DNA of 64,000 nucleotides from Gammaproteobacteria bacterium (lineage in GTDB: Bacteria; Pseudomonadota; Gammaproteobacteria; Pseudomonadales; Pseudohongiellaceae): assembly GCA_030682575.1 (NCBI GenBank), contig JAUXNX010000031.1, forward strand, positions 1-64,000, in the 5' to 3' direction. Position 1 is the first letter of the stretch. Each line of letters begins with the position of its first letter. Shown one piece after another: positions 1-60,612 of this stretch. The translations under genes were made by a program, and so were the position numbers. The notes beneath the pieces are model-generated. The model had not been told where the DNA came from. It ran no database searches and was given only the letters and a program-made list of their open reading frames with translations.

Positions 1-90
1 GGTGTCTCGTTCGTGGACCGTCGGCCGCCAGGGACGGCGGACGACGAGCCCCCATGGATGGGTTCACGGCGTGTCCACGAACGAGACACC
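1..90 (-). repeat. Palindromic repeat with conserved core, copy 1
   Basis: Perfect 18-bp inverted arms lie at 1-18 and 73-90 around a 54-nt loop (19-72). Read on the minus strand the loop begins ACGCCGTGAACCCATCCATG and closely matches the loops at 55740-55793 and 60531-60584. It differs from the 55740 copy at three positions, two of which compensate each other within a hairpin. The arm sequence is unrelated to the arms of the other copies. The element starts at the window edge, so the arm may extend further and its outer boundary cannot be seen. It lies downstream of rdgC. Confidence 0.9.
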
Positions 91-2424: not shown

Positions 2425-3261
2425 TCAGCAGGCGAGTGAGCCCAGCGTGACACGGTCATTAGCGTTCAGATCCTTGAGCGTTCTCACCTCCTGAAAACCA
2501 CATTGCTCCAGCAACGCTGCCACCGCCGGACCCTGTGTCCATCCATGCTCCAGCAGGAGCCAACCACCAGGTTTGAGATGATCAGGCGCTGCCATGCAGA
2601 TGGCACGAATGTCGGCGAGGCCATTATCTAATGCTGTCAATGCTGTGGCAGGTTCAAAGCGCAGATCCCCCTGCGACAGATGTGGATCATCGGGATCAAT
2701 ATAAGGGGGATTGCTGACAATCAAGTCGAACTGACCGGAGGGCAAAGCGTTGCACCAGTTGCCCCGATGGAACTCCACATTCTGAATGCCAAGCCGGGTG
2801 GCATTGTCACTGGCCACTATCAGCGCATCGATACTAGTGTCTGTGGCAATGAGCCGCCAACCGGGTCGCTCTGCGGCCAGAGCCAGAGCAATGGCACCAC
2901 TGCCGGTGCCGAGATCGGCGACGCGCATTACTCCGGCAAGTGACAGGGCAGCTTCTACCAGCAACTCGGTTTCCGGGCGAGGAATCAGCACATGACGATT
3001 GACATGCAGGGTCAGCGTCCAGAAGTCTCGAGTGCCGAGAATATACGCCATCGGTTCACCGAGCACACGGCGCTCCAGCAGGGAATCAAAACAGGAATGC
3101 TCGGAGGGACTCAGCAGGCGTTCGGGCCAGGAATACAGATGACTGCGGGGTTTGTCCAGCGCGCGGGACAACAACAACTCGGCATCCACCTGCACCGTGT
3201 CGCTGCCAGCGAGCGCATGACTGGCCATGCGCAATGCCTGCTTGATGGTGATCGCTGTCAT
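2425..3261 (-). CDS. prmC: Peptide chain release factor glutamine N5-methyltransferase PrmC (HemK)
   Basis: A 278-residue SAM-dependent methyltransferase. The N-terminal helical domain (about 1-85) recognises release factors. The Rossmann domain shows motif I VADLGTGSGAIALALA (about residue 115) and the catalytic NPPY motif in IVSNPPYIDPDDPHL (about residue 185), which binds the target glutamine. PrmC methylates the glutamine of the GGQ loop of RF1 and RF2. It lies 17 bp downstream of prfA, its substrate's gene, in the order hemA-prfA-prmC common in gammaproteobacteria. The length is normal and the three genes are likely co-transcribed. Confidence 0.95.
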   Translation of the reverse strand: MTAITIKQALRMASHALAGSDTVQVDAELLLSRALDKPRSHLYSWPERLLSPSEHSCFDSLLERRVLGEPMAYILGTRDFWTLTLHVNRHVLIPRPETELLVEAALSLAGVMRVADLGTGSGAIALALAAERPGWRLIATDTSIDALIVASDNATRLGIQNVEFHRGNWCNALPSGQFDLIVSNPPYIDPDDPHLSQGDLRFEPATALTALDNGLADIRAICMAAPDHLKPGGWLLLEHGWTQGPAVAALLEQCGFQEVRTLKDLNANDRVTLGSLAC

Positions 3262-3278
3262 GAATCACCCTGCAGCAA

Positions 3279-4364
3279 TCAAGACTCCGCCAGCTCGGCG
3301 AGCAGATCGGCCTGATGCTCATTGATGAGTGGTTGAATCACGGAATCCAGCGCACCTTCCATCACCTCGCCCAGCTTGTAGACGGTCAGGTTGATGCGAT
3401 GATCCGTCACGCGGCCCTGCGGATAATTGTAGGTGCGTATGCGCTCGGAGCGATCGCCGGTACCGACGAGCTTGCGACGCGTGTCGGAGACTTCCTGCGC
3501 CGCAGCCTGCTGCGCCTGATCGTTGAGCTTGGCGTGCAGCAGTGACATCGCGCGCGAGCGATTCTTGTGCTGTGAACGTTCGTCCTGGCACTCCACCACG
3601 ATGCCGGTAGGAATGTGAGTGAGGCGAATCGCGGAGTCCGTCTTGTTGACGTGCTGACCACCAGCACCGCTGGAGCGGTAGGTATCAATCCGCAGATCCG
3701 CCTTGTTGATCTCGATCTCCGCGAGTTCATCCATCGCGGGCATTACTGCAACGGTACAGGCAGAAGTGTGGATGCGTCCCTGAGTTTCAGTTTCCGGCAC
3801 ACGCTGCACGCGGTGGGCACCGGACTCGAATTTCAGGTGGCCATAGACATTCCTGCCCTCGATGCGCGTGATGATTTCCTTGTAGCCACCGTGTTCACCG
3901 GGACGCTCGCTGAGAATTTCCAGTTTCCAACCCTGCACTTCGGCATAGCGCGAGTACATGCGGAACAAATCGCCGGAGAAGATCGCTGCCTCATCACCAC
4001 CGGTGCCGGCTCGTACTTCCAGGAAGATGTTGCAGCTGTCTTTCTCATCCTTGGGCAGCAACAGTTTCTGCAGTTCCAGTTCCTGCTCCTCAAGACCGGC
4101 TTCAATGGTTCTGACTTCTTCATCTGCCATCTCGCGAATGTCGATGTCGGCATCCTTCTGCATTTCCCGCGCCTGCTTCAATTGGTTCTGCACGGTCTGG
4201 AACTGCATGAAAGCCTTCACAACGGGCTCGATCTCGGCGAACTCCTTCGAGAGCGTGCGAAAGCGATCCTGATTGGAGATTACTTCACCATCGCTGAGCA
4301 ATGCTTCCAGCTCTTCGTAGCGGTCCTGGAGGTTGGCGAGTTTGTTGAATATCGATTCTTTCAT
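3279..4364 (-). CDS. prfA: Peptide chain release factor 1
   Basis: A 361-residue class I release factor that reads UAA and UAG. The GGQ loop that triggers peptidyl-tRNA hydrolysis is seen in [17 protein letters not shown] (about residue 234). The N-terminal coiled-coil region and the C-terminal domain are complete, and the length matches the family. The start codon overlaps the hemA stop by 4 bp (4361-4364), so translational coupling is likely. prmC follows 17 bp later and modifies this protein. Confidence 0.97.
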
Positions 4365-48086: not shown

Positions 48087-48141
48087 GCGCGCATTGTTGC
48101 CTGAGCGGATTTTTTCCGCGGCCACAATACTGATTAGTTGT

Positions 48142-48283
48142 CATGGTGCCCGCCTGTCGCATTCTCTGGAACGCAATGGTCGGGATAATTGGGAAGCTGG
48201 TTCAATGCCAGCGCTGCCCCCGCAACGGTAAGCGATACGAGCGTGCAAACGCTTTCCCCGCAAGCCCGATACCAGCCTGACGA
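48142..48283 (+). promoter_or_regulatory. Cobalamin riboswitch upstream of btuB
   Basis: The region holds the cobalamin riboswitch core GCTGCCCCCGCAACGGTAAG (near 48213) and the B12-box-like AAGCCCGATACCAGCCTGAC (near 48262), with flanking paired elements GGGAAGCTGG/CCAGC. It lies 130 bp upstream of btuB and should shut off expression when adenosyl- or methylcobalamin is bound. A possible terminator (CCGGA/TCCGG at 48337-48352, then six T at 48359-48364) could be the expression platform. Confidence 0.93.
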
Positions 48284-48412
48284 CGAGTTACTACTGAGAT
48301 GAAGCGGAGGGCTCCATCGGTGGTCGGTTCAGTCGTCCGGAAATGTCTCCGGCGTCGATTTTTTCCTGCCGCTCCCCTCCCTCATGAAACTTATTTCATT
48401 GAGGACTTGTAA

Positions 48413-50960: not shown

Positions 50961-51142
50961 CTGCGCGGTGGGGAGGCTTCCGTACCGGACACGCCGTGAA
51001 CCCATCCAAGTACCCGTGCGGGCATAAAGGGGCTCGTCGTCCGCCGTCCGACCGCCATGGATGGCGGAAGTGCAGAAAATGCAGGAGCATTTTTCTGCCC
51101 TGGCGGCCGACGGTCCGGCACGGAAGCCTCCCCACCGCGCAG
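50961..51142 (+). repeat. Palindromic repeat with conserved core, copy 2 (expanded)
   Basis: 30-bp arms (50961-50990 and 51113-51142) pair with one mismatch (A against C, that is T/G in one strand). The loop (50991-51112) is 122 nt: it has all core blocks of the 54-nt core, but extra sequence is inserted in the apical loops of both internal hairpins. The arm sequence CTGCGCGGTGGGGAGGCTTC is unlike the arms of the other copies. It lies between the adenosyltransferase gene and btuF. No T tract follows the arms, so it is not an obvious terminator. Confidence 0.9.
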
Positions 51143-55707: not shown

Positions 55708-55825
55708 GAGCCGGAGTTGCGGGTTGAGGACGGCAGGACACGCCGTGAACCCATCCATGGGGGCTCGTCATCCGCCATCCCTGGCGGCTGACGGTCCTGC
55801 CGTCCTCAACCCGCAACTCCGGCTC
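55708..55825 (+). repeat. Palindromic repeat with conserved core, copy 3
   Basis: Perfect 32-bp arms (55708-55739 and 55794-55825) surround the 54-nt core at 55740-55793. The core begins ACGCCGTGAACCCATCCATG and folds into two hairpins: CCCAT/ATGGG and CGTCA-CCGCCA/TGGCGG-TGACG. The arm GAGCCGGAGTTGCGGGTTGA is unlike those of the other copies. It lies downstream of the GGDEF-EAL gene and about 250 bp from the ribA stop. There is no T tract next to the arms. The rest of the gap, 55826-56072, has a REP-like site (55985-56010) and no gene. Confidence 0.95.
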
Positions 55826-60456: not shown

Positions 60457-60482
60457 CTGTGGGAGCGGGCCTTGCCCGCGAT
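60457..60482 (+). repeat. REP-like sequence between ribBA and ribE
   Basis: CTGTGGGAGCGGGCCTTGCC followed by CGCGAT is very close to the Pseudomonas REP consensus (TGTGGGAGCGGGCTTGCCCGCGA). The arms GCGGGC/GCCCGC pair. It sits just upstream of the ribBA start codon on the coding strand. Confidence 0.75.
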
Positions 60483-60502: not shown

Positions 60503-60612
60503 CTGCCCGGCCAGTAGTCCTGGGCTGGACACGCCGTGAATACATCCTTGTAGGCTCGTCATCCGCCATCCCTGGCGGCTGACGGTCCAGCCCAGGACTA
60601 CTGGCCGGGCAG
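60503..60612 (+). repeat. Palindromic repeat with conserved core, copy 4
   Basis: Perfect 28-bp arms (60503-60530 and 60585-60612) surround a 54-nt core (60531-60584). The core is the same as in copy 3 except in hairpin 1, which is TACATCCTTGTA instead of CCCATCCATGGG, with two compensating pair changes. The arm CTGCCCGGCCAGTAGTCCTG differs from all other arms. It sits in the gap between ribE and ribBA inside the rib gene cluster, next to a REP-like sequence at 60457-60482 and a small palindrome at 60645-60663. The remaining gap has no gene. Confidence 0.95.

What the first reader, a model, noticed from the sequence alone, without database searches (positions are those of the whole stretch)
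55708..55825. A dispersed palindromic element with a constant 54-nt core and copy-specific perfect stems
Four copies lie in the window (1-90, 50961-51142, 55708-55825, 60503-60612). In three of them the loop is exactly 54 nt and nearly identical. The closing stems are perfect (18+, 32 and 28 bp; 30 bp with one mismatch in copy 2), yet apart from GGAC next to the core the stem sequences are unrelated. Perfect pairing without shared sequence means each copy's two arms are kept identical to one another or were made from one another, for example by template switching, gene conversion or ssDNA hairpin copying. Ordinary REP, MITE and attC elements have constant ends, so the reverse pattern here is unusual. 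I know of no named family of this design.
Basis: partly seen in the sequence, partly recalled or inferred. Interest (0 to 1): 0.88.

Follow-up and report, generated by a model that had tools for sequence, protein, structure and literature searches.

The report
Scattered RNA hairpins with CsrA-like loops
The palindromes belong to a widespread repeat family for which I found no name; its constant part looks like a folded RNA with two docking sites for the global regulator CsrA, on a long stem whose sequence differs from copy to copy while its two sides stay matched.

Summary
On the other strand (minus at copies 2-4) the element is a three-way junction: a copy-specific stem P1 (about 30 bp), hairpins P2 and P3, a conserved UUCAC bulge. 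Mismatches in P1 are G.U on that strand 167 to 15 in 163 copies, so selection sees one strand, probably RNA. Both hairpins tend to end in C[ANGGAN]G, the published high-affinity CsrA/RsmA site: two exact caps in 52 of 55 model-found copies, 159 of 248 pattern-found ones. The two GGAs are mostly 20 nt apart. No Rfam family matches. The family is in 48 of 229 sampled genomes of the class, with up to 123 copies in one. In two genomes young copies sit in TIR-bounded units and share P1: arms are inherited at insertion. Afterwards both arms change together, including double transversions and an indel in both, which suggests arm-to-arm copying. Transcription and CsrA binding are predicted, not shown. 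Single copies are antisense to neighbouring tandem genes 51 to 19: self-transcribed RNA or ssDNA element rather than mRNA element.

The parts
1..90 (+). Copy 1: arms 1-18 and 73-90 (cut by the contig start), core 19-72. The structured strand is +.
   Evidence: (model hit 1-90 +, 94.5 bits)
50961..51142 (-). Copy 2: arms 50961-50990 and 51113-51142 (30 bp, 1 mismatch), core 122 nt with an insertion in each hairpin. The structured strand is -.
   Evidence: (model hit 50973-51130 -, 57.4 bits)
55708..55825 (-). Copy 3 (the finding): arms 55708-55739 and 55794-55825 (32 bp perfect), core 55740-55793. The structured strand is -.
   Evidence: (94.6 bits)
55776..55783 (-). Cap of hairpin P3 in copy 3, reads C[AGGGAU]G on the - strand: CsrA/RsmA-type ANGGAN loop on a C-G pair
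   Evidence: consensus
55752..55759 (-). Cap of hairpin P2 in copy 3, reads C[AUGGAU]G on the - strand: second ANGGAN loop
   Evidence: consensus
55745..55749 (-). Conserved UUCAC bulge between the two parts of hairpin P2 (copy 3)
   Evidence: alignment
60503..60612 (-). Copy 4: arms 60503-60530 and 60585-60612 (28 bp perfect), core 60531-60584. The structured strand is -.
   Evidence: (90.8 bits)

Best explanation
A dispersed, mobile, structured RNA element of the window's bacterial class (Gammaproteobacteria by the named genomes that carry it). Read on the minus strand at window 55708-55825 it is: P1 5' arm - GAC - P3 hairpin capped C[ANGGAN]G - A - GCC and a short stem (P2) capped C[ANGGAN]G - UUCAC bulge - GGC - GU - GUC - P1 3' arm. 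Most likely working: the transcript folds into a three-way junction that presents two high-affinity CsrA/RsmA sites about 20 nt apart, so one CsrA dimer can bridge both. Many scattered copies then act as a distributed CsrA-binding load (sponge or local CsrA dock). P1 only holds and protects the junction, so its sequence is free to drift. Its arms stay matched by arm-to-arm templated correction (quasi-palindrome template switching) and by RNA-level selection that tolerates G.U. Copies spread at least in part as passengers of small TIR-bounded units. Shown here by sequence: fold, strand, caps, spread, inherited arms, joint arm change. Inferred: transcription, CsrA binding, the sponge role, the correction mechanism.
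For: Strand: non-Watson-Crick pairs in P1 are G.U on the structured strand 167 vs 15 of the opposite kind in 163 copies (own genome 13 vs 1, genome-contig loci 125 vs 10). Over all stems of 55 copies fetched by model hits it is 65 vs 6 (a structure model may itself favour G.U). The bias holds for copies sense (83:4) and antisense (115:9) to tandem neighbours. Fold: 91.7% of cells paired vs 60.7% shuffled and at most 42.4% slid; covariation score 0.737 vs 0.162 (108 of the 128 rows). Caps: in the 55 model-found copies the closing pair is C-G in 55 of 55 for each hairpin, and 52 of 55 have two exact CANGGANG caps. In the pattern-found set 246 of 248 have one or two; the same motif is on the other strand in 29 of 248. 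Published consensus: ANGGAX hexaloop directly on a stem, N and X variable (PMC4005645, passages); SELEX RUACARGGAUGU, bridging of sites 10-63 nt apart, optimum >18 (PMC7652899, passages). GGA-to-GGA gap 20 nt in 42 of 55 rows of A2 and 49 of 108 of A1. csrA is in the window's genome and in 39 of 41 genomes with the element. Mobility: 26 of 27 G072 units are 206-210 bp between the same TIRs at mostly different places, and 19 G104 units are bounded by another TIR; orthologous sites are filled or empty.
Against: No transcript or binding data were available; a sigma-70 scan around copy 3 found nothing. Single copies in tandem gene contexts are antisense 51 to 19, so read-through mRNA cannot explain most of them. 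csrA is nearly as common without the element (33 of 37) and missing in 2 of 41 with it (G106, 88% complete; G233, 98% complete), so co-occurrence says little. In the pattern-found set of 248 copies only 159 have two exact CANGGANG caps, 87 have one and 2 none; many P3 loops lack the A or the N, though GGA lies in or next to the P3 loop in 149 of 151. GGAY in P2 was partly fixed by my search patterns; P3 and the 55 model-found copies are the fairer test. The conserved UUCAC bulge and junction are not explained by CsrA. By general knowledge G.T and G.A are also the better tolerated mismatches in ssDNA, so a ssDNA function is not excluded.
Confidence: 0.5

Rival explanations
1. A single-stranded-DNA mobile element: the structured strand folds as ssDNA during replication or transfer and a transposase or nuclease recognises the junction and the GGA loops. 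The CsrA likeness is chance.
For: Dispersed, patchy, often in inverted pairs (53 of 77 neighbouring pairs divergent) and in tandem arrays (six copies about 227 bp apart in L302), like BIMEs. The strand bias does not depend on neighbouring gene direction, single copies are mostly antisense, and weak outer motifs travel with it.
Against: No recurrent neighbour gene (largest cluster reaches 7 of 116 loci). The only Y1 transposase match in the window's genome has no element in its 3.3 kb locus. The carrier units have unrelated TIRs in the two genomes examined, so mobility there probably comes from the carrier. The match to ANGGAN and the C-G closure would be coincidence in two hairpins.
Confidence: 0.27
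2. A cis-acting mRNA-end element (terminator, stabiliser or RNase III site) in 3' untranslated regions.
For: Element-bearing intergenic regions are convergent more often than those without (44 of 158 vs 74 of 533); the fold is very stable.
Against: No terminator-like site with a U-tract at copy 3. The structured strand is antisense to the neighbouring genes in 51 of 70 tandem single cases. A long stem alone would not need two fixed loops and a fixed bulge.
Confidence: 0.1
3. One reading: arms are copied from one another or from the target when the core inserts.
For: Arms of different copies in the window look unrelated while each copy is self-matched.
Against: Dispersed young copies share the same arms; sites without the core show no arm sequence; arms of flank-matched copies in different species differ while pairing is kept.
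Confidence: 0.03
4. Pure RNA-level selection with tolerated intermediates keeps P1 paired; no arm-to-arm DNA copying.
For: Strong G.U bias, one-sided intermediates in G072, and G.A as the second commonest mismatch, through which two of the four G104 double transversions could pass.
Against: 4 of 5 distinct double changes in the young G104 family are transversions that cannot pass through G.U, and one deletion is shared by both arms. This does not bear on whether the RNA binds CsrA.
Confidence: 0.3

Closest known systems
CsrA/RsmA-sequestering RNAs (CsrB, CsrC, RsmX/Y/Z, RsmU)
   Same: ANGGAN-type hairpin loops on C-G pairs, spaced for dimer bridging
   Different: Those are single sRNA genes (recalled) with more GGA sites in the ones described: four in RsmU (PMC7694677, passages), six in RsmX (PMC4005645, passages). 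Here two sites sit in one three-way junction on a long variable stem, in many scattered copies. No Rfam match.
REP/BIME elements with RAYT transposases
   Same: Intergenic, high copy, inverted pairs and arrays, strand-specific hairpin
   Different: REPs are listed with a GT(A/G)G head and a palindrome fixed per strain, next to a rayt gene (PMC2817692, passages). Here the loop region is constant and the stem copy-specific; GTAGAGC is in 8 of 76 genus copies; no copy lies by the one Y1 transposase.
MITEs
   Same: In G072 and G104 the element lies in short TIR-bounded units of about 209 and 359 bp, too short for a transposase gene
   Different: The core is the same in units with unrelated TIRs; it is cargo, not the TIR. 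I saw no clear TIR in the window's genus, only weak outer motifs.
Integron attC sites
   Same: Imperfect palindrome active on one strand (recalled)
   Different: attC has constant ends and a variable loop (recalled); here the reverse. Not tested against attC models.
Beggiatoaceae TAACTGA repeats
   Same: Dispersed intergenic repeats discussed as post-transcriptional signals
   Different: Short direct repeats; their authors judged canonical CsrA binding unlikely (PMC4679880, passages)

Membership tests
CsrA/RsmA-binding RNA | ANGGAN loop directly on a stem, closed by C-G | tested here: met
   C-G closure 55 of 55 in both hairpins; two exact caps in 52 of 55 model-found copies but only 159 of 248 in the pattern-found set, one in 87, none in 2
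CsrA/RsmA-binding RNA | Two sites 10-63 nt apart for dimer bridging | tested here: met
   GGA-to-GGA gap 11-25 nt in the 161 of 163 rows measured, 20 nt in 91; range from PMC7652899
CsrA/RsmA-binding RNA | Transcribed and bound by CsrA | not testable with these tools
   No RNA-seq or binding data on hand
CsrA/RsmA-binding RNA | csrA in the same genomes | tested here: inconclusive
   39 of 41 with the element, 33 of 37 without
REP/RAYT element | Cognate rayt gene flanked by copies | tested here: not met
   One Y1_Tnp match in the window's genome, no copy in its 3.3 kb locus; other genomes not tested
REP/RAYT element | GT(A/G)G head and constant palindrome | tested here: not met
   GTAGAGC in 8 of 76 genus copies; palindrome differs by copy
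MITE | Terminal inverted repeats bounding a dispersed short unit | tested here: met
   In G072 and G104, the two genomes examined for it
MITE | TIR-bounded unit in the window's own genome | tested here: inconclusive
   Only weak outer motifs seen
Known Rfam family | Score above a family's gathering threshold | tested here: not met
   Window and 17 loci of other genomes: only tRNA and cobalamin riboswitch matches. Copy 3 alone at E up to 10: best hit a miRNA hairpin model, 37.5 bits against a threshold of 80

The most novel reading that the evidence does not exclude
A selfish or domesticated genome-wide CsrA sponge: a class-wide mobile RNA whose dispersed copies together set the free CsrA/RsmA pool, so that copy number is a heritable dial on a global regulator. 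Its stems are a natural system in which both arms of each hairpin evolve as one unit by intrastrand copying.
Probability: 0.25. Interest if true: 0.93.

Novelty: new variant of a known kind. Interest (0 to 1): 0.74.

Why it matters
If the CsrA reading holds, some gammaproteobacterial genomes carry tens to over a hundred CsrA-type elements (123 matches in G393) that match no Rfam family and that I saw described in no listing of my eight library searches. Regulon models would then be incomplete, and a mobile repeat could act as a regulator by dosage. Independently of CsrA, the young families make a question directly testable: how fast, and by what mechanism, the two arms of a DNA palindrome copy each other.

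Tried and rejected
Rejected: arms made from the target at insertion (shared arms in young copies). Rejected: arms as pre-existing host hairpins, since orthologous sites without the core show no arms by eye: site 2, 11 relatives without it and 2 unreadable of 13 loci; site 4, 2 filled and 11 without of 13; site 3, 7 without, 1 with a pair, 1 partial at a contig end and 2 rearranged of 11 read. At site 4 the G011 gap keeps element-like flanks and a TGG repeat at the hairpin foot, so it may be a deletion rather than an empty site. Rejected for the window's genome: a RAYT-type REP. Rejected: a recurrent neighbour gene. Blastn of copy 3 against plasmids and phages gave no match. No promoter or terminator was found at copy 3. 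A passing idea of a sigma-54 promoter at GGCAC was dropped by eye, not tested.

Limits. Gene calls come from my own simple ORF scorer, on part of the loci. Rows for A1 required arms of at least 18 bp and a core of at most 56 nt, so P1 pairing is inflated by selection; I aligned 108 of 128. One search lists 30 flank-matched copy pairs, many of them duplicates within Xanthomonas arrays and at least one doubtful. In one search two G072 copies with other arms were set aside, and copies whose core did not begin CGTCAGC or CGTTAGC were not taken. The csrA test used 41 of the genomes with a match. Papers were seen as passages only: PMC9788540, PMC4005645, PMC7694677, PMC7652899, PMC12889724, PMC2817692, PMC4679880. 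PMC9788540 lists 549 Alcanivorax sRNAs, some in several copies; its tables were not readable here, and an Alcanivorax MAG carries the element (L065, L113), so a transcript of it may already be in such a list.

Full report
The arms are 18, 30 (one mismatch), 32 and 28 bp. Copy 1 begins at the first base of its contig, so its arm is cut. The core is 54 nt in copies 1, 3 and 4 and 122 nt in copy 2, which has an extra piece in each hairpin. The window's genome (3.73 Mb, 33 contigs) has 30 matches to the core with up to two mismatches. Six of the 30 lie within 100 bp of a contig end, and two pairs of contig ends look like halves of one element each, so the number of distinct elements is lower.

Which strand matters. 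In 163 copies I compared mismatches inside P1 with a scoring that penalises all mismatches alike. The split holds in the window's genome (13 to 1) and in the loci from genome contigs (125 to 10). Over all stems of 55 copies fetched by model hits it is 65 to 6; a structure model may itself favour G.U. It holds for copies sense (83 to 4) and antisense (115 to 9) to tandem neighbours (there the arm extension treats G.U as neutral, which favours G.U slightly). So structure is maintained on the minus strand at window copies 2-4 and on the plus strand at copy 1, whichever way the flanking genes run.

The fold. On that strand the family is a three-way junction: P1, then P3, then P2, which is split by a UUCAC bulge. 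On an alignment of 108 sequences (of 128 listed) the structure pairs 91.7% of cells against 60.7% when shuffled and at most 42.4% when slid; 30 of 34 pairs have changes on both sides, and the covariation score is 0.737 against 0.162. The number of further pair types does not exceed the shuffles (99 against 101). The alignment was chosen for long arms, so the pairing level of P1 is inflated. The covariance model built from it finds the four window copies and nothing else there; 12 of its 108 rows are from this genome, including copies 3 and 4.

The loops. In the 55 model-found copies both hairpins are closed by C-G in 55 of 55, and 52 of 55 carry two exact CANGGANG caps; both N positions vary. 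Published work defines the high-affinity CsrA/RsmE site as an ANGGAX hexaloop directly on a stem, N and X variable (PMC4005645, passages). It gives the SELEX consensus RUACARGGAUGU, with bridging of two sites 10-63 nt apart and best above 18 (PMC7652899, passages). The gap between the two GGAs is 20 nt in 42 of 55 rows of A2 and in 49 of 108 of A1. In the larger, pattern-found set of 248 copies only 159 have two exact caps, 87 have one and 2 none; on the other strand the motif occurs in 29 of 248. Where a cap is missing, the P3 loop often lacks the A or the N. In one search GGA was in or next to the P3 loop in 149 of 151. P2's GGAY was partly fixed by the patterns that found those copies.

Spread. 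With the model, 48 of 229 sampled genomes of the class have it, the window's own included. In a phylum sample 19 of 249 do, all of them the window's own or of its order or class (the number of other-class genomes is not printed). Three genomes searched more fully have 123, 77 and 50 matches. csrA is in 39 of 41 genomes with the element and 33 of 37 without, which does not discriminate.

Mobility and the origin of the arms. At three orthologous sites in the genus the element is present or absent between species, and sites without the core show no arms by eye. Species G011 has a divergent pair at the finding's site; G009 and G013 have head-to-head palindromes that look like deletions between the two members of a pair. 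Genomes G072 and G104 carry young families. In G072, 26 of 27 units measure 206-210 bp between the same TIRs, at mostly different places. In G104, 19 units of 310-362 bp are bounded by a different TIR. In both, dispersed copies share P1, so arms travel with the element. In 4 of the 32 G104 copies the core lies inverted relative to the flanks, as expected from recombination between the two arms.

How arms stay matched. In G104, setting aside three copies with indels, there are 5 distinct double substitutions that keep pairing and 9 distinct one-sided ones; 4 of the 5 are transversions, which cannot pass through G.U, though two could pass through G.A. Of the three set aside, one has the same deletion in both arms and two have one-sided indels. 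At a one-sided rate near 1% per pair, independent double hits should be far below one (my estimate). G072 gives 44 paired and 24 one-sided differences in 24 copies, with much shared descent and some mosaics. The likeliest cause is arm-to-arm templated correction. RNA-level selection then sets which leftovers survive.

Context. Neighbouring copies within 800 bp are divergent (structured strands pointing apart) in 53, tandem in 14 and convergent in 10 of 77. Single copies between tandem genes are antisense 51 to 19; intergenic regions with copies are convergent more often than those without (44 of 158 against 74 of 533, my own gene caller). No neighbour gene recurs widely (largest cluster reaches 7 of 116 loci). 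This fits an element that supplies its own transcription, or one read as ssDNA, better than an mRNA-end element.

What it is, with confidence. I hold it likely (0.8) that this is one old structured family selected on one strand, fairly likely (0.65) that it acts as RNA, and about even that CsrA/RsmA is its partner. A sponge role is my best guess for function. It works like a CsrA-binding RNA by its anatomy; membership in that kind needs binding data. It is not a REP by the tests made, it rides in MITE-like units in two genomes, and it matches no Rfam family. Searches of the held papers for its sequence returned nothing, and in the listings of the topical searches I saw no description of it.

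Noticed in passing
L302 (G448) 927-2151; L097 (Xanthomonas hortorum) 2495-3350: Arrays of the element: six tandem copies about 227 bp apart in L302, six in alternating orientation about 150 bp apart in L097.
   Followed up: no
contig C17:64521-64560, just past the window (L029, L030): Head-to-head palindrome made of two 5' halves of the core (both strands match), like the rearranged copies of G009 and G013 at site 3.
   Followed up: partly
window 51053-51097; L014, L020, L023, L026: A second repeat (CGCCATGGATGGCGGAAGTGCAGAAAATGCAGGAGCATTTTTCTG) sits inside hairpin P3 of several copies and also alone in a spacer in L020.
   Followed up: no
L007/L011 and L006/L028 (contig ends C22/C24 and C21/C14): Contig ends that look like two sides of one hairpin: the element seems to break the assembly; 6 of 30 matches lie within 100 bp of a contig end.
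   Followed up: partly
L099, L100, L105, L118: Records titled Klebsiella pneumoniae MAG carry the element; L118 shares flank sequence with the lake MAG locus L119, so at least that label is probably wrong.
   Followed up: no
alignment A1, columns 13-15 with 79-81: G.A mismatches cluster at a fixed place in P1, 2-4 pairs outward of the conserved GAC.
   Followed up: no
window 48126-48294: Cobalamin riboswitch (RF00174, 73.7 bits).
   Followed up: no
window 60458-60482 and G010 at site 4: A REP-like repeat (TGTGGGAGCGGGCCTTGCCCGCGAT) lies beside copy 4; G010 has it as an inverted doublet and no element there.
   Followed up: no
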